Assembly: GCA_026993075.1 (NCBI GenBank)
Contig: JALWUQ010000077.1
Coordinates: 1-35,980, forward strand
Length of the DNA stretch: 35,980 bases
Direction: 5' to 3'
Origin: Campylobacteraceae bacterium
GTDB taxonomy: Bacteria; Campylobacterota; Campylobacteria; Campylobacterales; JALSKU01
Under the pieces are notes generated by a model that searched no databases, was not told where the DNA came from, and worked only from the letters and a program-made list of their open reading frames with translations. Both the position numbers and the translations under genes were made by a program. This document shows, one piece after another, positions 1 to 22,282 of the stretch. Every line of letters begins with the position of its first letter. Position 1 is the first letter of the stretch.

Positions 1-1
1 A

Positions 2-109
2 GGAAAATTTAGAAAGAGAGCTGGCAATTATCGAATTATATATTTAAAAGAAAATGATTATTTAGTTATTTCGGTTATCAGAATTGCACATAGGAAAGAA
101 GTTTATTAA
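2..109 (+). CDS. RelE/ParE-family toxin, C-terminal part (5' end outside window)
   Basis: An open frame enters from the left edge and stops at 107-109. The 35 visible residues include GNYRIIYL, then a short beta-strand stretch, and finish with IRIAHRKEVY. This matches the end of the RelE/ParE/YoeB-like fold: a Y-R-I-I-Y strand followed by a terminal H-R-K-x-x-Y segment. In RelE-type toxins these C-terminal basic and Tyr residues contribute to ribosome-dependent mRNA cleavage, while ParE members instead poison gyrase; the fragment cannot tell them apart. The antitoxin gene is expected just upstream but lies outside the window. The stop codon sits 2 nt before an attC-like repeat, so this is probably the coding part of an integron cassette, where toxin-antitoxin pairs are common. 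The family call is fairly firm; the subfamily is not. Confidence 0.72.
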   Translation, partial: GKFRKRAGNYRIIYLKENDYLVISVIRIAHRKEVY

Positions 110-111
110 GC

Positions 112-182
112 TTATAACAAAACAGAGTAGCCGATAAATTACCTAGCGGAAATTTATCGGCTATCTTCGGCCATTGTTATAT
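112..182 (+). repeat. attC-like recombination site 1 (putative integron cassette end)
   Basis: This is a nested inverted repeat. The outer arms are TTATAAC (112-118) and GTTATAT (176-182); with flanking bases TATAACAA pairs TTGTTATA over 8 bp. The inner stem is a perfect 13-bp pair, TAGCCGATAAATT (128-140) with its complement at 151-163, around a 10-nt loop. AGA at 124-126 pairs with TCT at 164-166, leaving G127 unpaired like the extrahelical base of an attC L'' box. Outer R boxes, an unpaired spacer, L boxes with one extra base, and a variable central stem is the attC plan. The left and right spacers are uneven (3 and 7 nt), which is a weakness. No T-run follows, so an intrinsic terminator is less likely. 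Confidence 0.6.
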
Positions 183-561
183 TACATAAGGAGAATAAAC
201 ATGACTATTATGAGATTATGGCATGGAGAAGTTGCAATTGAAAAAGCAGACGATTATGAGAAATTCATGATTGAAAGAGCTGCTCCAGACTATGGCTCTG
301 TTGAAGGCCTTCTTAAATTATATTTTCAGCGTAAAAATGAAGAAACAAAAGCACACTTCCTGTTAGTAACACTTTGGGATTCGATCGATTCTGTTAAAAA
401 ATTTGCAGGCGATAATCCCGAAATTGCAAAGTATTACCCTGAAGATGATGACTTCTTGATAGAAAAAGAAAAACATGTATCTATGTATAAAGTTTTCTAT
501 GAGAAGTAATATAACCCATCAATGAAGAGGGACTGGGCAAAGGTGACATCATTTAGGCAGG
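177..561 (+). mobile_element. Putative integron gene cassette carrying the ABM-fold ORF
   Basis: Inference from the two attC-like sites. Integron recombination cuts between G and TT of the R' heptamer, so the cassette would run from 177 to 561, about 385 bp. It holds one short forward ORF that nearly fills it. The ORF starts 18 nt after the first R' box and its stop codon overlaps the second R'' box. No convincing promoter is visible inside. This compact single-ORF layout is the hallmark of cassettes. The integrase gene and attI are not in the window and would be expected to the left. The claim depends on the attC assignments. Confidence 0.5.
201..509 (+). CDS. ABM-fold (dimeric alpha/beta barrel) small protein, possible cassette gene
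   Basis: A 102-residue soluble protein beginning MTIMRLWHGEV. It shows the pattern of the antibiotic-biosynthesis-monooxygenase-like fold: an R-x-W-H-G-x-V first strand, a helix with a Y-E-K-F-like segment, a strand with T-L-W-D-S-I-D, then a F-A-G-D-x-P-E-I-A-K-Y-Y-P-E-D segment before the last strand. Members are small homodimeric proteins; some are cofactor-free oxygenases and many have no known substrate, so no reaction is assigned. The ATG at 201 is chosen because AAGGAG lies about 7 nt upstream (188-193); an upstream in-frame TTG at 174 sits inside the attC-like R' arm and is unlikely. The gene lies between two attC-like repeats with no visible promoter of its own. Confidence 0.75.
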   Translation: MTIMRLWHGEVAIEKADDYEKFMIERAAPDYGSVEGLLKLYFQRKNEETKAHFLLVTLWDSIDSVKKFAGDNPEIAKYYPEDDDFLIEKEKHVSMYKVFYEK

Positions 562-567
562 TTATAT
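509..567 (+). repeat. attC-like recombination site 2 (putative integron cassette end)
   Basis: The outer arms ATATAAC (509-515) and GTTATAT (561-567) are perfectly complementary, and the pairing extends to 10 bp (507-516 with 560-569). An inner pair, AATGA (521-525) with TCATT (549-553), is separated from the outer arms by unpaired spacers of about 4 and 6 nt. The interior is G-rich. The right-hand heptamer GTTATAT is identical to that of the first site. At 59 bp it is at the short end for attC. The inner L-type stem is weaker than in site 1, with no clear extrahelical base, so the call leans on the pairing with site 1 and on its position at the ORF stop. Confidence 0.5.
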
Positions 568-610: not shown

Positions 611-651
611 CTGGTGATAGTGATATCATAAAGTACTATCGCTATCACCAG
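611..651 (+). terminator. Strong hairpin, probable terminator between cassette region and feo operon
   Basis: CTGGTGATAGTGATA (611-625) pairs with 637-651 over 15 bp with one G-T wobble around an 11-nt loop. It is followed by a T-rich run from about 656 to 680. It would terminate transcripts leaving the cassette region before the feo promoter. The rest of 568-736 holds only this hairpin and the Fur-type promoter elements. Confidence 0.6.
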
Positions 652-760: not shown

Positions 761-1003
761 TTGAAAAAAGTTTCTGATTTAAAGATTGGTGATGAAGCAA
801 TCGTAAAAAAAATTATAGCAAAAGAGCCTGTAAAAGGCAGACTGAGTGCTATGGGTATCATAAAAGGTGCTAATGTAAAGGTGTTAAAACATACTTTAGC
901 AAAACAAACTTGGGATATTCTTGCCAATAGTACAAAAGTTGGATTAAGAGAAGAGGAAGCCAAAAATATTTTAGTGGATAACATGGATAACAAAAATGAA
1001 TAA
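761..1003 (+). CDS. feoA: Ferrous iron transport protein A (FeoA)
   Basis: An SH3-like small cytosolic protein of about 80 residues that assists FeoB in Fe(II) uptake. It shows the FeoA pattern: V-S-D-L-K-I-G-D near the start, then G-R-L-S-A-M-G-I-I-K-G-A-x-V, and a terminal L-R-E-E-E-A region. A TTG start at 761 is preferred: GGAG lies at 752-755, and homologues start right before the SDLKIG segment. The in-frame ATG at 737 has no ribosome binding site and would sit only about 12 nt after the predicted transcription start. The gene overlaps feoB by 8 nt, and the operon follows the Fur box. Confidence 0.9.
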   Translation: MKKVSDLKIGDEAIVKKIIAKEPVKGRLSAMGIIKGANVKVLKHTLAKQTWDILANSTKVGLREEEAKNILVDNMDNKNE

Positions 1004-3095
1004 AAAGATAAAAGTAGTAGTTGCCGGACAGCCAAATGTCGGAAAATCTACTATATTAAATACAATAAGTAATGCAAAGCTTCATACCGGAAACTTTTCA
1101 GGAGTTACTGTTGATAAAACAGTAGTTGAGATAAAAAAGAGTGATTATGATATAAAAATGGTGGATCTTCCCGGTATTTACTCTTTAAATGCATATACTC
1201 CAGAAGAACAGGTAGCAAAAAATTACCTTTTTGATAAAGAATATGATGTTATCGTAAATATAGTAGATGCCAATATTTTATCAAGGAACCTTATATTTAC
1301 TTTACAGCTTTTAGATATGCAAAAGAAAATGATTCTAATCGTAAATATGATAGATGAGGTTGAGGGAAAAGGTGGAAGTATAGATAAAAATAGACTAGAA
1401 ATACTTTTGGGAATTCCTGTGATTTTAACTTCTGCAAAAGAGCATAGAGGGGTTGATGAGATAGTTGAAACCATTATACAAACTTATGAAAAACAAAAAC
1501 AAAAAAATAAAATATACTATAACGAACGAATTGAACTTAGAATTGAGAAATTAGCTTCAATTCTAAAAAAATCACCGCATTTTAAAGATATAAATTATGC
1601 AAGATTTGTAGCAATAAGATTACTTGATAGGGATGAAAATACTTATAAAACAATCCATGATTTGCCGATTTTTATTGAAGTGCATGATGTTCTTGAAAAG
1701 ATGTATAGAAAACTTGAAACAGAATTTGATGAAGAGAGTACAAGTGATATACTCTCCAATGAAAGAGCTGCAATATCATACAATTTGCAAAGAGAAACTT
1801 TAAAAATACCGGAAATCAAAGAGAGTTTTAGTGAAAAAGTAGATAATATTTTAATACATCCGATATTTGGATTACCGATATTTTTGTTTTTTATGTGGGC
1901 ACTTTTTCAATTGACTTTTCAACTTGGCAATATACCTATGAATTGGATAGATATTGCTTTTAGCTCAACAGCAAATTACCTTTCAGAGATTTTGCCACAA
2001 GGAAGTTTCAATTCTCTTTTGACCGAAGGAATTATACCTGCGGTAGGAGCTGTTGTTATGTTTTTGCCAAATATATTGATACTGTTTTTTGGTATAAATC
2101 TTTTGGAACAAACAGGATACATGGCAAGGGCTGCATATTTGATGGATGGATTTTTGAAGAGATTTGGGCTTCAGGGGAAAGCTTTTGTGCCGTTAGTCAG
2201 TGGATTTGGTTGTACAGTTCCTGCATATATGGCAGCAAGGACTCTTAAGAATCCAAAAGATAGGATTATCACAATGCTGGTTTTAGGTTTTATGAGTTGT
2301 GGTGCAAGGCTTCCTATATATGTTTTAGTTATTGCAGCTTTCTTTGCAAATCATAACCCGGGGAATGTTTTATTTGCTATTTATATAGGAGGAGCAGTAT
2401 TGGGTTTGATTGTTGCAAAAATACTGAGGACTGTTTTATTTAAGGGTGAACCTGAACCATTTGTAATGGAGATACCACCTTATCGTTTTCCATCTGTAAA
2501 ATCACTTTTTATGGATTTGTGGATTAAAACAAGAATGTTTTTGAAAAAAGCCGGAACATTTATAGCCCTTGCTGCGATGGTTGTATGGTTTTTAAGCACA
2601 TATCCACACCATCCTAAAATTGTTCAATCCTATGAAAAAAAGATAGAACTCGCTACTACAAAAGTGCAAAAAGATAAATTAAATGATGAAATGAGTGCAA
2701 AGTTATTGGGGGAAAGTTATATAGGTACAATAGGCAAAACAATAAATCCTGTATTTAAACCATTGGGTTTTGATTGGAGAATGACAGTTTCTGTTATAGC
2801 CGGATTAGCTGCTAAAGAAGTTGTAGTATCAACTATGGGTACACTCTATGCTGTAGGAAATCATGGTAACAATACAGGTCTTATCAAAAAAATGCAGCAA
2901 AATATCAGCTTTAGAGCAGCTATTGCACTTGTAATTATTATAATGATATATTCTCCTTGTTTGGCGGCGATGAGTACATTTTATGCAGAAGTACCTCAAT
3001 GGGCCTGGAGAACATTTTATACTATTTATCCAAATGTTGTGGCTTGGATATTAGCATTTTTTGCTTATAAGGCTTTAGGCTTATTGGGATATTAG
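996..3095 (+). CDS. feoB: Ferrous iron transporter FeoB
   Basis: Inner-membrane Fe(II) permease with an N-terminal GTPase. Residues 1-165 form the G domain: G1 GQPNVGKS at 11-18, switch Thr near 38, G3 DLPG at 57-60, G4 NMID at 117-120, and an SAK G5 motif. A helical linker follows, then a membrane region from about residue 285 with several hydrophobic helices and the conserved segments V-S-G-F-G-C-T-V-P-A and S-C-G-A-R-L-P, the Cys-containing Gate motifs. At 699 residues it is of typical bacterial length. It overlaps feoA by 8 nt (ATGAATAA) and is followed 57 nt later by a second feoA-like gene. Regulation is expected through the upstream Fur box. Confidence 0.96.
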   Translation: MNKKIKVVVAGQPNVGKSTILNTISNAKLHTGNFSGVTVDKTVVEIKKSDYDIKMVDLPGIYSLNAYTPEEQVAKNYLFDKEYDVIVNIVDANILSRNLIFTLQLLDMQKKMILIVNMIDEVEGKGGSIDKNRLEILLGIPVILTSAKEHRGVDEIVETIIQTYEKQKQKNKIYYNERIELRIEKLASILKKSPHFKDINYARFVAIRLLDRDENTYKTIHDLPIFIEVHDVLEKMYRKLETEFDEESTSDILSNERAAISYNLQRETLKIPEIKESFSEKVDNILIHPIFGLPIFLFFMWALFQLTFQLGNIPMNWIDIAFSSTANYLSEILPQGSFNSLLTEGIIPAVGAVVMFLPNILILFFGINLLEQTGYMARAAYLMDGFLKRFGLQGKAFVPLVSGFGCTVPAYMAARTLKNPKDRIITMLVLGFMSCGARLPIYVLVIAAFFANHNPGNVLFAIYIGGAVLGLIVAKILRTVLFKGEPEPFVMEIPPYRFPSVKSLFMDLWIKTRMFLKKAGTFIALAAMVVWFLSTYPHHPKIVQSYEKKIELATTKVQKDKLNDEMSAKLLGESYIGTIGKTINPVFKPLGFDWRMTVSVIAGLAAKEVVVSTMGTLYAVGNHGNNTGLIKKMQQNISFRAAIALVIIIMIYSPCLAAMSTFYAEVPQWAWRTFYTIYPNVVAWILAFFAYKALGLLGY

Positions 3096-3152: not shown

Positions 3153-3419
3153 ATGAAGTTAAGCCAGTTGCAAAGGGGTCAAAGAGCTGTTATAAAAAAT
3201 ATAGATTTGCCTGAAGATATAAAAGAAAGATTAAGCTCTATGGGATTTATAAAGAATGAATTAATTTTTATATGCAGAGTTGGTCTTTTGCGAGGTAGTT
3301 TTTATATTAAAATAAACTGTAGCTCATGTATAATCATAAATAAAAATGAAGCCCAAAATATAGAGGTAGAATTGCTGGGCAACGCTCATAGATACAGATG
3401 GGGTAAACACTTAGGTTAG
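3153..3419 (+). CDS. Second FeoA-domain protein with CxxC motif
   Basis: An 88-residue FeoA-domain protein downstream of feoB, with L-S-Q-L-Q-R-G-Q at the N terminus and K-E-R-L-S-S-M-G-F-I-K-N-E matching FeoA. The ATG at 3153 is preferred over the preceding TTG; GAGAGGGA lies just upstream. It differs from the first copy: it has Cys41 and a C-x-x-C pair at 56 and 59, and a C-terminal tail with His and Arg residues. The Cys set could bind metal, and the protein may take the place of the FeoC found in enterobacterial operons, but that is inference. The stop overlaps the convergent cation-efflux gene by 4 nt. Confidence 0.85.
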   Translation: MKLSQLQRGQRAVIKNIDLPEDIKERLSSMGFIKNELIFICRVGLLRGSFYIKINCSSCIIINKNEAQNIEVELLGNAHRYRWGKHLG

Positions 3420-11038: not shown

Positions 11039-13138
11039 TTAACTGCAATCGGCAGGATTTTTATCTTGGAACATAAAAAGATACTCATATTTTACAAGAT
11101 TTTGTCTGAGCTTGGAGATATTATGAAGTTTTAATCCATCCTTAATCCAGCTTTTTATATCTTTTGGAAAGTTATCTACAAGAGGTTGCAAAAGTGTATT
11201 TTTCATAGTTTTATCTATTTGATTGTTTTCGTATAAAGCAGTAACATGTGATATAATAGTTGTATCTTTGAGTTCTCTTTTTTCACAAATTTCTGAGATA
11301 TTTTTACCTTCTTTGATGAGTAAAAGTGTTTCTTTGTGGGTTTTGCTCAACTCCTTTGGAGCAATTTCTTTTATATCTTTGCATAATTTTAGAAATTCTT
11401 TTCCATATCTTTCAAGCTTTTTCTCTCCGACACCTGATATTTGCAAAAACTCATCTTTGTTTATGGGCAATTTTTTTGAGATTTCCAGCAGAGTTTTATC
11501 ACTAAATATAATATAAGCAGGAACATCATCTTTTTTTGATAGAGTAGTTCTTAGTTCTCTTAGCTTTTCAAAAGTTTCATTGGTATTTTCATCTTTTTTA
11601 TACTCTTTAAAACTTTTTTTTATTTCCAAATCCCTGGCATTAATGTTGACAGTTTTTTCTTTTTTTAGTATTTGCTTTGCAATATTTGTAACTTTTAATG
11701 AGCCGAACTCTTTATCAATATACAGTGCTTCTTCATCAAGAAGTTTATCGAAGATACTCCCCCATTGCAATTTACTCAAATCCTGCCCTATACCGTAAAC
11801 AGAGAGCTTGTCATGACCAAAATCAAATATTCTTTTAGCTCTTGAGCCTCTTAAAACATCTATGATGTAGGCACTGCCAAATCTTTCTTTGCATCTTAAA
11901 ATCGTTGAGATAAATTTTTGGGCTTCGAGTGTAATATCTAAAAATTCTACATCTTTATCCAGACAATTATCACAAAGGATTTCGCATTTTTGTATCTCAT
12001 CTCCAAAGTATTTGGCAATTGATTGGTGGCGACATTTTGAAGATATGGCAAATCTGTACATTTGTCTTAATTTTTCATATATATTTCTTTTGTATTCGGA
12101 TTCTGGTAACTCATCGATAAAAACTCTTTTGCTTATCTCATCGGCTTTTGAGTAAAGCAATAATGTATCACTCATAAGCCCGTCTCTACCGGCTCTTCCA
12201 ATCTCTTGAAAATAATTTTCTATGGTTTTTGGCATTGAAGTGTGTAAAACAAATCTAATATTGCTCTTATCTATACCCATGCCAAAAGCTATGGTTGCAA
12301 CGATGATTTTCAAAGAGTCATTTTTGAAATCTTTAAATATTTTCTCTCTTTTGTTTACACTAAGTCCTGCATGGTAAGCTTCTGTGATAAAGCCTTTATC
12401 ATTTAAATAACTTGATAACCTTTCGGTCTCTTTTCTTGTAAAGCAGTAAATTATCCCACTCTCGTCTTTATGAGTATGTAAAAACTCAATAATTTGCTCT
12501 TTGGCATTTCCTATTCTTTTTTGAGATCTTATTATGAGGTTGTTTCTGTTGGCTTTTGCTCTTAAGACTTGTTTTTTATCTATTTTAAGGGTTTTTAGTA
12601 TATCTGATTGTACGGTTTTTGTAGCGGTTGCAGTAAATGCGGTGACGGGAGTATCTTTAAACCACTCTTTCAAATGTTGTAATTTTCTGTAATCATCTCT
12701 AAATTCATGCCCCCATTCACTAACACAATGTGCCTCATCTATAACAAAAAAGTTTATCTTTACTCTTTTTAGATTTTGTAAAAAATACTCATTTACAAAT
12801 CTTTCAGGCGCAACATAAAGAAATTTTAACTTATTGTTGAGCAATTCATCCATAGTTTGAGCATTTTCTTTTTGAGTGTTGCTTGAGCTTATCATTTTGG
12901 CATTTATGCCATTTACTCTAAGAGAGCTTACTTGATCTTGCATAAGAGCTATAAGAGGAGATATAACTATGCTAACACCATCCATCATCATAGTAGGCAG
13001 TTGGTATATTAAAGATTTTCCACTGCCTGTCGGTAAAATAACGAGTAAATCATTTTTGTGTAGTATCTCTTGTATAGCTTTTTTTTGGATAGGTTTGAAC
13101 TCATTAAAACCAAACTGTTCTTTGAGGATTTTATACAC
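11039..13138 (-). CDS. recQ: ATP-dependent DNA helicase RecQ
   Basis: A 699-residue superfamily 2 3'-5' helicase for recombination and fork repair. Walker A is in P-T-G-S-G-K-S with Lys41, the D-E-A-H box at 134-137 is followed by C-V-S-E-W-G-H-x-F-R, and motif VI is Q-E-I-G-R-A-G-R-D-G. A zinc-binding set with C-R-H, C-E-I-L-C-D-N-C lies at about 370-395, then a winged-helix RQC region and an HRDC domain near 540-600 (I-S-G-V-G-E-K-K-L-E-R-Y-G). It is longer than E. coli RecQ because of a C-terminal helical extension. The start is GTG at 13138. It is divergent from the aldehyde dehydrogenase and preceded on its strand by a TATAAT element. Confidence 0.94.
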   Translation of the reverse strand: MYKILKEQFGFNEFKPIQKKAIQEILHKNDLLVILPTGSGKSLIYQLPTMMMDGVSIVISPLIALMQDQVSSLRVNGINAKMISSSNTQKENAQTMDELLNNKLKFLYVAPERFVNEYFLQNLKRVKINFFVIDEAHCVSEWGHEFRDDYRKLQHLKEWFKDTPVTAFTATATKTVQSDILKTLKIDKKQVLRAKANRNNLIIRSQKRIGNAKEQIIEFLHTHKDESGIIYCFTRKETERLSSYLNDKGFITEAYHAGLSVNKREKIFKDFKNDSLKIIVATIAFGMGIDKSNIRFVLHTSMPKTIENYFQEIGRAGRDGLMSDTLLLYSKADEISKRVFIDELPESEYKRNIYEKLRQMYRFAISSKCRHQSIAKYFGDEIQKCEILCDNCLDKDVEFLDITLEAQKFISTILRCKERFGSAYIIDVLRGSRAKRIFDFGHDKLSVYGIGQDLSKLQWGSIFDKLLDEEALYIDKEFGSLKVTNIAKQILKKEKTVNINARDLEIKKSFKEYKKDENTNETFEKLRELRTTLSKKDDVPAYIIFSDKTLLEISKKLPINKDEFLQISGVGEKKLERYGKEFLKLCKDIKEIAPKELSKTHKETLLLIKEGKNISEICEKRELKDTTIISHVTALYENNQIDKTMKNTLLQPLVDNFPKDIKSWIKDGLKLHNISKLRQNLVKYEYLFMFQDKNPADCS

Positions 13139-13157
13139 AATAACTCTTTTTATTTTT

Positions 13158-13163
13158 ATTATA
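13158..13163 (-). promoter_or_regulatory. -10 element for recQ
   Basis: The minus strand reads GATATAATAA here, with TATAAT about 20 nt upstream of the GTG start, in a 68-bp divergent gap shared with the aldehyde dehydrogenase gene. Confidence 0.5.
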
Positions 13164-13206
13164 TCATTTTGTGCTAAAATAATACAATCATAACAAGGAG
13201 TATATT

Positions 13207-14622
13207 ATGCAAGCAAAGATTTTTTTTGGAAGCGAAGAAGCAACAAAAGATGAGTGGATCGAAATAAAAAATCCTTTTAAAGAAAAAATTGTCTCAATGT
13301 ATTCAAAGTGTGATGAAAATGATGCAAAGAAAGCTCTTTTGGTAGCAAAAGAAGCTTTTAAACAAACAAAAAATTCTACTTTAAATCAGAGGATAAAATG
13401 GCTTGAAGATGTTGCAAGCAAGTTGGAAGAAAAAAAAGATGAATTTGCAAAAACTATAACAAATGAAGTTGGCAAACCCATAAAATTTTCTATTATTGAA
13501 GTTGAAAGATGTATAGAAACTATCAAATTAACAATTTCAGCAGTTATAGAATTAAGTGGAGAAACTTTTAATAGTGATGCTATGCCAAGCGGTAAGAAAA
13601 CTATAAGTCTTTATAAAAGAGTTCCATGTGGTGTTGTTGTGGCTATTACGCCTTTTAATTTCCCACTTAATTTAGTAGCCCACAAGATAGTTCCAGCTCT
13701 TGCTGTTGGAAATACAGTAGTTCTTAAGCCAACTCCGGAAGCTCCACTTATAGCTTATAAATTTACAAAACTGTTTATACAGAGTGAATTTGCCATAAAA
13801 GATGCTTTAAGTATCGTGTATGGGGACAGCAAAGTAGGCTCCGCTCTTGTAAGTAGTGAAATACCCAGAGTTATAAGTTTTACAGGAAGCGTTGCAGTTG
13901 GTAAAATTATTACCAAAAATGCCGGTATTAAAAAAGTGGCGCTTGAACTTGGTGGAAATGCAGCAACTTTTATCGAAAAAAGTTCTGATATCAAAGAGGC
14001 AGCTTTGAAGTGTGCAGCAGCAGCATTTTACAACTCTGGGCAAGTTTGTATATCTCTTCAAAGAATTTATGTGCAAGATGAAGTTTATAGGGAGTTTGCA
14101 AAATTATTAGTAGAAGAGACAAATAAATTAACAATAGGTGATCCATACGAAAAAGATACTTTTATAGGGCCGCTTATCAATCAAGAAGCTATAAACAGGG
14201 CGAAAAATTGGGTCAAGAGTGCTATTGGGGAAGGTGCTAAAGTATTGTGTGGCAATAAAGCAGAAGATAAAGTTTTTTATCCTACTGTTATGGGAAATGT
14301 TAAAGATGATATGATGATAATCTGCGAAGAAGTATTTGCTCCTATTGTCTCTTTGATAAGGGTAAAAGATTTTGACGAAGCTGTTAAAAAGATAAATAAC
14401 TCACCTTACGGACTTCAGTACTCCATATTTACCAATGATTTAAATTTGACAAAAAGAGCTATAGATGAATTTGAGTGTGGAGGAGTTGTGGTAAATGATA
14501 TTCCTACTCTTAGATTTGATATTCAACCTTATGGAGGAGTCAAGCTAAGTGGAACAAGCAGGGAAGGTCCAAAATTTGCCCTTGAAGAGTTTAGTGATAT
14601 AAAGTCAGTTGTGATTTGTTAA
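13207..14622 (+). CDS. NAD(P)-dependent aldehyde dehydrogenase
   Basis: A 471-residue ALDH-superfamily enzyme that oxidises an aldehyde to a carboxylate. The cofactor region has I-T-P-F-N-F-P and K-P-T-P-E-A-P, followed by F-T-G-S-V-A-V-G. General base Glu247 lies in L-E-L-G-G-N, catalytic Cys281 in N-S-G-Q-V-C, and E-E-V-F-A-P is present. It resembles the lactaldehyde / non-phosphorylating glyceraldehyde-3-phosphate dehydrogenase branch, such as the archaeal lactaldehyde dehydrogenase, but substrate cannot be assigned from motifs. AAGGAG lies about 7 nt before the ATG. It is monocistronic and converges on ribF with a 4-nt overlap at the stops. Confidence 0.9.
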   Translation: MQAKIFFGSEEATKDEWIEIKNPFKEKIVSMYSKCDENDAKKALLVAKEAFKQTKNSTLNQRIKWLEDVASKLEEKKDEFAKTITNEVGKPIKFSIIEVERCIETIKLTISAVIELSGETFNSDAMPSGKKTISLYKRVPCGVVVAITPFNFPLNLVAHKIVPALAVGNTVVLKPTPEAPLIAYKFTKLFIQSEFAIKDALSIVYGDSKVGSALVSSEIPRVISFTGSVAVGKIITKNAGIKKVALELGGNAATFIEKSSDIKEAALKCAAAAFYNSGQVCISLQRIYVQDEVYREFAKLLVEETNKLTIGDPYEKDTFIGPLINQEAINRAKNWVKSAIGEGAKVLCGNKAEDKVFYPTVMGNVKDDMMIICEEVFAPIVSLIRVKDFDEAVKKINNSPYGLQYSIFTNDLNLTKRAIDEFECGGVVVNDIPTLRFDIQPYGGVKLSGTSREGPKFALEEFSDIKSVVIC

Positions 14623-21196: not shown

Positions 21197-22282
21197 ATGA
21201 ACTTTAAAAAATGGAAAGATGGTAAGGATTATTCTCTCGGGGCAGAATTGGAGGCGAGATTTCAAGATAAAAAAAACTATAAACTTTTAAATCTCTCATC
21301 AAAAATGCAAAAACTTATAAATAAAAAATACAAAAAAAGAATTCACCAAGAGTTTTTAGAGTGTATGGTTGAATTTGTAAGCCCAATATGTAAAAACTCA
21401 CAAGAAGTTATAGATGAACTTCAAGACAGTATCAGATACTTTTTATCTTTAAGTGATAAATTTTTATTGAGCATATCAGGTTCTTATTCGCTACTGGTTG
21501 GTCCACTTAAGCATGTAGATGAGCAAAGATATGATTCTTTTGCAAATGAATACGGTATCCTTCTCTCTAGATTTCATATATGTGGATTTCATATACATGT
21601 TGGCATGCCAACAAGTGATGATGCGCTAAAAGCGTACAATGTAACTTTGGAATATCTTCCCGTATTTTTAGCTCTTAGTGCAAATTCTCCTTTTTTTAAT
21701 GGTGAATTCACAGGACTTTTATCTTACAGAGCCAAACTTTTTGAACAGTTACCAAGGGCTGGTCTTTCATCATATTTTGATACATTTGAAGATATGAAAG
21801 ATTTATATGAAAAAATGTATAAATCCGGTACCCTAAAAAGTCATAAGGATATTTGGTGGGATGTCAGAATCAGTCCTGTATTTAAAACTTTGGAGATTAG
21901 GATTTGTGATGCAAGCAATGATTTTGAAAGGTTAAGGCTTTTGATAAATCTTTTTCAAGCATTATGTCTTTACTCAAAAGAGATTGAGCTTAAAAAGATA
22001 CCACATCAAATACTTTTACAAAACAGATGGAATGCGGCTAGACATGGGCTTGATGGTATTTTTCAAAATAATGACAAGATTTGCACTATAAGAGAGCATT
22101 TTTTGGATTTATTGAAAAATATGGAAAAAAAGAGTATATTCTTAAAACTAAATACTGACAAATCAATAGAAAAATTAAAAAATTTAGCTTATGAAGATGA
22201 GTTGGCGAAAAAAAAGATAAGGACATTTGAGAAATATAAAAATCTTTTAAATGTAGAAAAGCTTGGAAAGGTAGAGATTTGA
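21197..22282 (+). CDS. GCS2/YbdK-like carboxylate-amine ligase
   Basis: A 361-residue protein of the glutamate-cysteine ligase type 2 family: L-G-A-E-L-E-A-R-F at the start (metal-binding Glu residues), G-F-H-I-H-V-G-M in the middle, R-A-G-L-S-S-Y-F, and D-I-W-W-D-V-R-I-S with K-T-L-E-I-R-I-C-D-A. These enzymes use ATP to join a carboxylate, often the gamma-carboxyl of glutamate, to an amine; YbdK itself has weak gamma-glutamylcysteine activity. The substrate is unknown. The stop overlaps the start of the next gene, a GGT-family hydrolase, so synthesis and cleavage of a gamma-glutamyl bond could be paired. No glutathione synthetase gene is nearby. Confidence 0.85.
   Translation: MNFKKWKDGKDYSLGAELEARFQDKKNYKLLNLSSKMQKLINKKYKKRIHQEFLECMVEFVSPICKNSQEVIDELQDSIRYFLSLSDKFLLSISGSYSLLVGPLKHVDEQRYDSFANEYGILLSRFHICGFHIHVGMPTSDDALKAYNVTLEYLPVFLALSANSPFFNGEFTGLLSYRAKLFEQLPRAGLSSYFDTFEDMKDLYEKMYKSGTLKSHKDIWWDVRISPVFKTLEIRICDASNDFERLRLLINLFQALCLYSKEIELKKIPHQILLQNRWNAARHGLDGIFQNNDKICTIREHFLDLLKNMEKKSIFLKLNTDKSIEKLKNLAYEDELAKKKIRTFEKYKNLLNVEKLGKVEI

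What the first reader, a model, noticed from the sequence alone, without database searches (positions are those of the whole stretch)
112..567. Two attC-like sites bracket a lone ORF: likely integron cassette array end in a Campylobacterota chromosome
Directly seen: nested inverted repeats at 112-182 and 509-567 share the right-hand heptamer GTTATAT and have complementary left heptamers TTATAAC and ATATAAC. Each begins within 3 nt of the preceding stop codon, and between them sits a single forward ORF without an evident promoter. The item to the left is a RelE/ParE toxin end, a typical array-stabilising cassette. Known: attC sites consist of R''-L''-L'-R' boxes with variable centres, and Vibrio repeats use TTATAAC/GTTATA-type R boxes (from memory). 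Inference: 1-567 is the distal end of a cassette array; what follows is stable core chromosome.
Basis: partly seen in the sequence, partly recalled or inferred. Interest (0 to 1): 0.82.

Follow-up and report, generated by a model that had tools for sequence, protein, structure and literature searches.

The report
Stray integron gene cassettes beside feoAB
The left end of this contig carries integron gene cassettes (the end of a toxin gene and one small gene, with a well-supported attC recombination site between them) that sit in the chromosome away from the recognisable integrase gene; this is a known kind of element, found here in little-studied Campylobacterota.

Summary
The hairpin at 112-182 is a real attC site. 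A model built from 33 related sites scores it 85.8 bits, it folds far better than shuffles (z -7.2), and its family recurs at about 60 sites in Sulfurimonas, Sulfurovum and relatives, with covarying stem pairs and abrupt divergence outside. One relative has the same attC family beside a full integron integrase. The second hairpin (509-567) has perfect outer arms directly after a stop codon, but no significant fold, model support or relative: a plausible degenerate attC. The genome holds an integrase C-terminus, but next to an rluA-like gene. By synteny with a close relative lacking the insert, the window's cassettes lie between a DUF302-like gene and feoA, with no integrase at the visible left border. 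Best reading: a small cluster of attC sites lacking an integrase (CALIN), one of at least three cassette blocks in this genome, not the end of a classical integron; an assembly gap leaves some doubt. Known kind, new member. All three blocks abut a REP-like palindrome, unexplained.

The parts
2..109 (+). C-terminal end of a ParE/RelE-type toxin gene (cassette 1, cut by the contig start)
   Evidence: Open frame to stop 107-109; Pfam ParE_toxin E 6.8e-6; homologues followed by the same attC family in L157 and L161, and partly in G003:C7
112..181 (+). attC1: R'' box 112-118, imperfect stem about 126-166, right-hand core triplet A^TT 173-175 (crossover between 173 and 174 by comparison)
   Evidence: 85.8 bits with model R1; fold z -7.23; covariation in 33 sites; core placed by junctions in L085, L146, L157
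174..561 (+). Cassette 2 (388 bp) if attC2 is accepted as its attC
   Evidence: Left end from the attC1 crossover; right end from the G of GTTATAT 561-567 (inference)
201..509 (+). 102-aa ORF with an ABM-like (dimeric alpha/beta barrel type) fold, passenger gene; AAGGAG upstream as likely ribosome-binding site
   Evidence: Pfam ABM E 0.016, below cut-off; model pLDDT 66 matches ABM-fold structures; found in 2 of 100 relatives
509..567 (+). attC2-like inverted repeat: R'' 509-515, R' 561-567; plausible degenerate attC, not shown
   Evidence: 7/7 outer and 6/7 inner arms, 0.18 expected per strand; against: 6.2 bits, z -0.21, no relative
611..651 (.). REP-like palindrome at the right border of the block; half copy of the same variant at the left border on contig C35
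761..1003 (+). feoA-like gene, first gene right of the block (start TTG 761 as in G003, or ATG 737)
   Evidence: matches G003 feoA, 95% identical over 665-2944; gene name from sequence, no family search run
996..3095 (+). feoB-like gene, core chromosome right of the block
   Evidence: present in the same order in G001 and G003

Best explanation
Window 1-567 is the right end of a small block of integron gene cassettes inserted in the chromosome between a DUF302-like gene and feoA. attC1 folds as a single-strand hairpin of the kind an integron integrase recombines, so the toxin cassette and its neighbours can be exchanged one at a time (exchange at the core triplet is shown by comparison; the enzyme step is inferred from known integrons). 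The block has no integrase at its visible left border, and the recognisable integrase fragment of this genome lies next to an rluA-like gene. The block is therefore a CALIN, most likely seeded by that integrase acting in trans at a secondary chromosomal site, or left over from an older array (inferred). The toxin-antitoxin cassette probably stabilises the block (inferred from other integrons). The 102-aa gene is a passenger, translated from its own ribosome-binding site and probably transcribed by read-through (inferred).
For: attC1: family of about 60 sites in Campylobacterota with sharp edges, covariation in 14 of 24 pairs, 85.8 bits, fold z -7.23. Cassette exchange: one toxin cassette with three different downstream neighbours, and one downstream cassette behind two different upstream genes, all switching at the core triplet. 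Same attC family in cis with a full integron integrase in L147; full integrases in five genus relatives. Location: G003 has the DUF302-like gene and feoA adjacent without cassettes; in this genome the DUF302-like gene ends contig C35 and is followed by a small ORF and an attC start, no intI. Integrase C-terminus next to an rluA-like gene on C83. At least two further cassette blocks elsewhere.
Against: C35 and C77 are joined only by synteny with G003; the gap between them is not assembled and no contig overlaps the ends, so an integrase inside the gap is not excluded. PMC9024848 warns that broken assemblies yield false CALINs. The integrase of this genome is seen only as its last 54 residues, so its activity is unknown. 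attC1 has A, not G, at the crossover base. attC2 lacks support beyond its arms.
Confidence: 0.78

Rival explanations
1. It is the distal end of a complete sedentary integron whose integrase lies in the unassembled gap, or is linked to this array in a way the contigs hide.
For: The gap between C35 and C77 is open; the genome does hold an integrase fragment at a contig start; integrons with the same attC family exist in relatives.
Against: The integrase fragment is continuous with an rluA-like gene, a position shared with G007. The left border of this block follows the DUF302-like gene directly, where an attI and intI would be expected. No other integron integrase was found in the genome.
Confidence: 0.14
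2. The block reached the feoA site by recombination between dispersed REP-like palindromes (or by a larger transfer between relatives), not by integrase action at a secondary site.
For: A REP-like motif lies within 100 bp of a border of all three blocks in this genome; a rough estimate for three blocks is about 4e-6 if placement is limited to intergenic DNA. Both borders of the feoA block share the variant CTATCGCTATCAC, found at only these two places.
Against: Cassette blocks in G003 contigs C33, C301, C116 and C283 and in G006 have no such motif near them; the shared repeat is only about 26 bp. The estimate was made after seeing the pattern.
Confidence: 0.1
3. The inverted repeats are ordinary terminators or repeats unrelated to integrons.
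For: attC2 on its own would not be convincing.
Against: Family recurrence, covariation, exchange at the core triplet and a relative with the same sites beside an integron integrase. No terminator-like site was found in 1-800.
Confidence: 0.02

Closest known systems
CALIN elements (clusters of attC sites lacking an integron integrase)
   Same: Cassettes with attC sites and no integrase at the visible border; proposed origins include off-target insertion by an integrase located elsewhere in the genome (PMC8618304).
   Different: The count of attC sites and the absence of an integrase cannot be settled because of the assembly gap.
Sedentary chromosomal integrons of Campylobacterota
   Same: Same attC family, toxin cassettes and mostly unknown genes; L147 has intI, cassettes and family attC sites together. 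The phylum is already listed among those with integrons (PMC8618304).
   Different: In the window's genome the cassettes at feoA are not next to the recognisable integrase fragment.
Cassette insertion at attG sites (Loot et al. 2024, known here only from its citations in PMC11023631 and PMC12901181)
   Same: Cassettes in chromosomal positions away from attI.
   Different: The junction could not be matched to a defined attG site, and the block holds several cassettes.
   Same: R'' box and nested hairpin layout (from memory).
   Different: Shorter loop and a different stem sequence (from memory); not compared with tools.

Membership tests
attC site (attC1) | R'' and R' core boxes (…AAC / GTT…) | tested here: met
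   AAC conserved; the homologous core in the family is GTT, here ATT at 173-175. Met for the family, with one base changed in this copy.
attC site (attC1) | Imperfect hairpin with unpaired bases in the stem | tested here: met
   Fold z -7.23; unpaired base in the stem and covariation.
attC site (attC1) | Marks the boundary at which cassettes are exchanged | tested here: met
   Different neighbours joined exactly at the core in window, L085, L146, L157.
attC site (attC2) | R and L boxes with a stable hairpin | tested here: inconclusive
   Boxes present, fold not significant, 6.2 bits.
attC site (both) | Recombined by an integron integrase | not testable with these tools
   Needs an assay.
Complete integron | intI and attI next to the cassettes | tested here: not met
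   No intI in the window or on C35 beside the block; fragment on C83 next to an rluA-like gene. The gap is untested.
CALIN | At least two attC sites with no integrase nearby | tested here: inconclusive
   attC1, attC2-like and an attC start on C35, no integrase seen; the gap prevents a firm statement. IntegronFinder was not available.

The most novel reading that the evidence does not exclude
In this lineage cassettes leave the integron and settle at REP-like palindromes across the chromosome, so that a repeat family rather than attI serves as the landing place, and the blocks differ between close relatives.
Probability: 0.12. Interest if true: 0.6.

Novelty: new member of a known kind. Interest (0 to 1): 0.33.

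Why it matters
Complete integrons in public genomes are counted mostly in Gammaproteobacteria (PMC9024848). Here one attC family is shared across Sulfurimonas, Sulfurovum and other Campylobacterota, and a genome with an integrase gene at one place carries cassettes at several others that are free of cassettes in a close relative. If an intact integrase is confirmed, this would be a natural case of off-platform cassette insertion that can be tested by comparing strains.

Tried and rejected
Rfam scan of the window: no match. Exact R''...R' pattern search of the genome: fewer matches than the reversed control. A first structure string on a 9-row alignment was out of register and is not used. Pattern scan of viral contigs: nothing. 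The ends of C35, C77 and C83 do not overlap any other contig, so the gap could not be closed. NCBIfam gave no family for the 102-aa ORF and the PDB sequence search gave no credible hit. Spread by REP recombination was considered and kept as a rival. The idea that the shared A at the crossover locks toxin cassettes in place was considered; it cannot be tested here.

Full report
What is there. The window is contig C77 (35,980 bases) of a 1.9-Mb assembly in 88 contigs. The contig opens inside a ParE-type toxin gene, then attC1 (112-181), a 102-aa ORF (201-509), a second inverted repeat (509-567), a REP-like palindrome (611-651) and feoA- and feoB-like genes (named from sequence, no family search).

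attC1 is real. An exact pattern from its left half matched 50 stretches of genome contigs, nearly all Campylobacterota; about 60 sites line up, with abrupt loss of similarity on both sides (a few are the same record held twice). In 33 aligned sites 87% of pair cells form standard pairs and 14 of 24 pairs change on both sides, with 0 of 500 shuffles as high; slid versions pair at 29-45%. A covariance model gives the window site 85.8 bits. The window site helped to build that model, but the near-identical sites elsewhere make the point without it. The bottom strand folds with z -7.23.

Where the crossover is. The toxin cassette of the window has homologues in G003:C7 (L085) and L157. All three run together through the attC and then part: CCA|TTGTTATATTAC in the window, CCA|TTAGCAACACAAAAGG in G003, TCG|TTAGACTACTAT in L157. 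The DNA that follows in G003 also follows a different upstream gene in L146, there as CCG|TTAGCAACACAAAAGG. The usual first base is G: a simple pattern scored GTT at 49 of 53 sites and ATT at 2. Whether A blocks recombination is not tested.

attC2. Perfect 7/7 outer boxes and 6/7 inner boxes start on the last base of the ORF stop. Shuffled windows give 0.18 such sites per strand, so the placement is suggestive. But the fold is no better than shuffled sequence (z -0.21), the model score is 6.2 bits, and no relative was found among the loci held. It is called plausible, not shown.

Integrase. Five genus relatives (G002, G004, G005, G006, G007) have full-length integron integrases over the curated cut-off; G005:C54 also has an attC of the broader family on the same contig. 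L147 has intI on the minus strand at 1305-2273 and family attC sites at 3249 and 4176. In the window's genome only the last 54 residues of an integrase were found, at the start of contig C83, followed by an RluA-like pseudouridine synthase gene. G007 has the same pair of neighbours.

The feoA site. G003 is 95% identical over feoAB, but only from window position 665 rightwards. There feoA follows a DUF302-like gene across a short intergenic stretch without cassettes. In the window's genome that gene lies on contig C35, 95% identical up to 21442; the contig then shows a small ORF and the start of an attC (AGCATAACAAAACCTTG) and ends at 21727. So the block is bounded by two genes that are neighbours in G003, and the part nearest the expected attI side shows no integrase. 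None of the contig ends overlaps another contig, so the interior is unknown. Both borders carry the variant CTATCGCTATCAC, found at only these two places in this genome.

Other blocks. The broader model finds further sites in this genome at C3:984 and C3:1779 and at C63:13445 (the same site as C43:3; the two contigs overlap by about 127 bases), and nine matches in G003, of which two are the two strands of one site. G003 shows no cassettes at the flanks matching these places and has cassettes elsewhere; at the C63/C43 place the two flanks are not adjacent in G003, so that comparison is weaker.

The passenger gene. The 102-aa protein is found in 2 of 100 relatives; the G004 copy has no attC in the 300 bases downstream by eye. 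Pfam ABM is below its cut-off. A moderate-confidence model (pLDDT 66) matches ABM-fold structures, including haem-degrading IsdG and IsdI. Fold likeness does not give the reaction.

What is inferred. Integrase action in trans, stabilisation by the toxin-antitoxin cassette and transcription by read-through are inferences from known integrons. Integrons in Campylobacterota are already recorded, and off-target insertion is a proposed origin of CALINs (PMC8618304). The caution that broken assemblies produce false CALINs comes from PMC9024848.

Noticed in passing
window 611-651; G000 C35:21447, C3:1867, C63:12691: A REP-like palindrome (half CTATCRCTATCAC, 13 exact matches in this genome) lies beside all three cassette blocks; in G002:C106 a copy sits at the end of a Y1 transposase gene, as in RAYT/REP systems.
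   Followed up: partly
L180 (G000:C3) 1-1850: Second cassette block: an unknown gene, attC, a BrnT/BrnA-like toxin-antitoxin pair (named from sequence), attC, then the palindrome; the contig starts right at an attC end.
   Followed up: partly
L007 (G000:C63) 12774-13569 and L008 (C43) 1-127: Third block: a long attC-like hairpin, a toxin-antitoxin cassette and an attC of the window's family ending in ATT, next to a der-like GTPase gene.
   Followed up: partly
L149 and L152: Contigs titled Crocinitomix (Bacteroidota) and Candidatus Gracilibacteria carry the same attC family; either binning errors or cassette transfer.
   Followed up: no
L028 (G011:C1:310639-311583) and L032 (G014:C14:46218-47162): Integron integrases of related genomes with one in-frame stop each, possibly decayed.
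   Followed up: no
L147 1-2273: Here the integrase lies next to an aconitase-like gene, not an rluA-like gene, so the integron platform differs in place between lineages.
   Followed up: no
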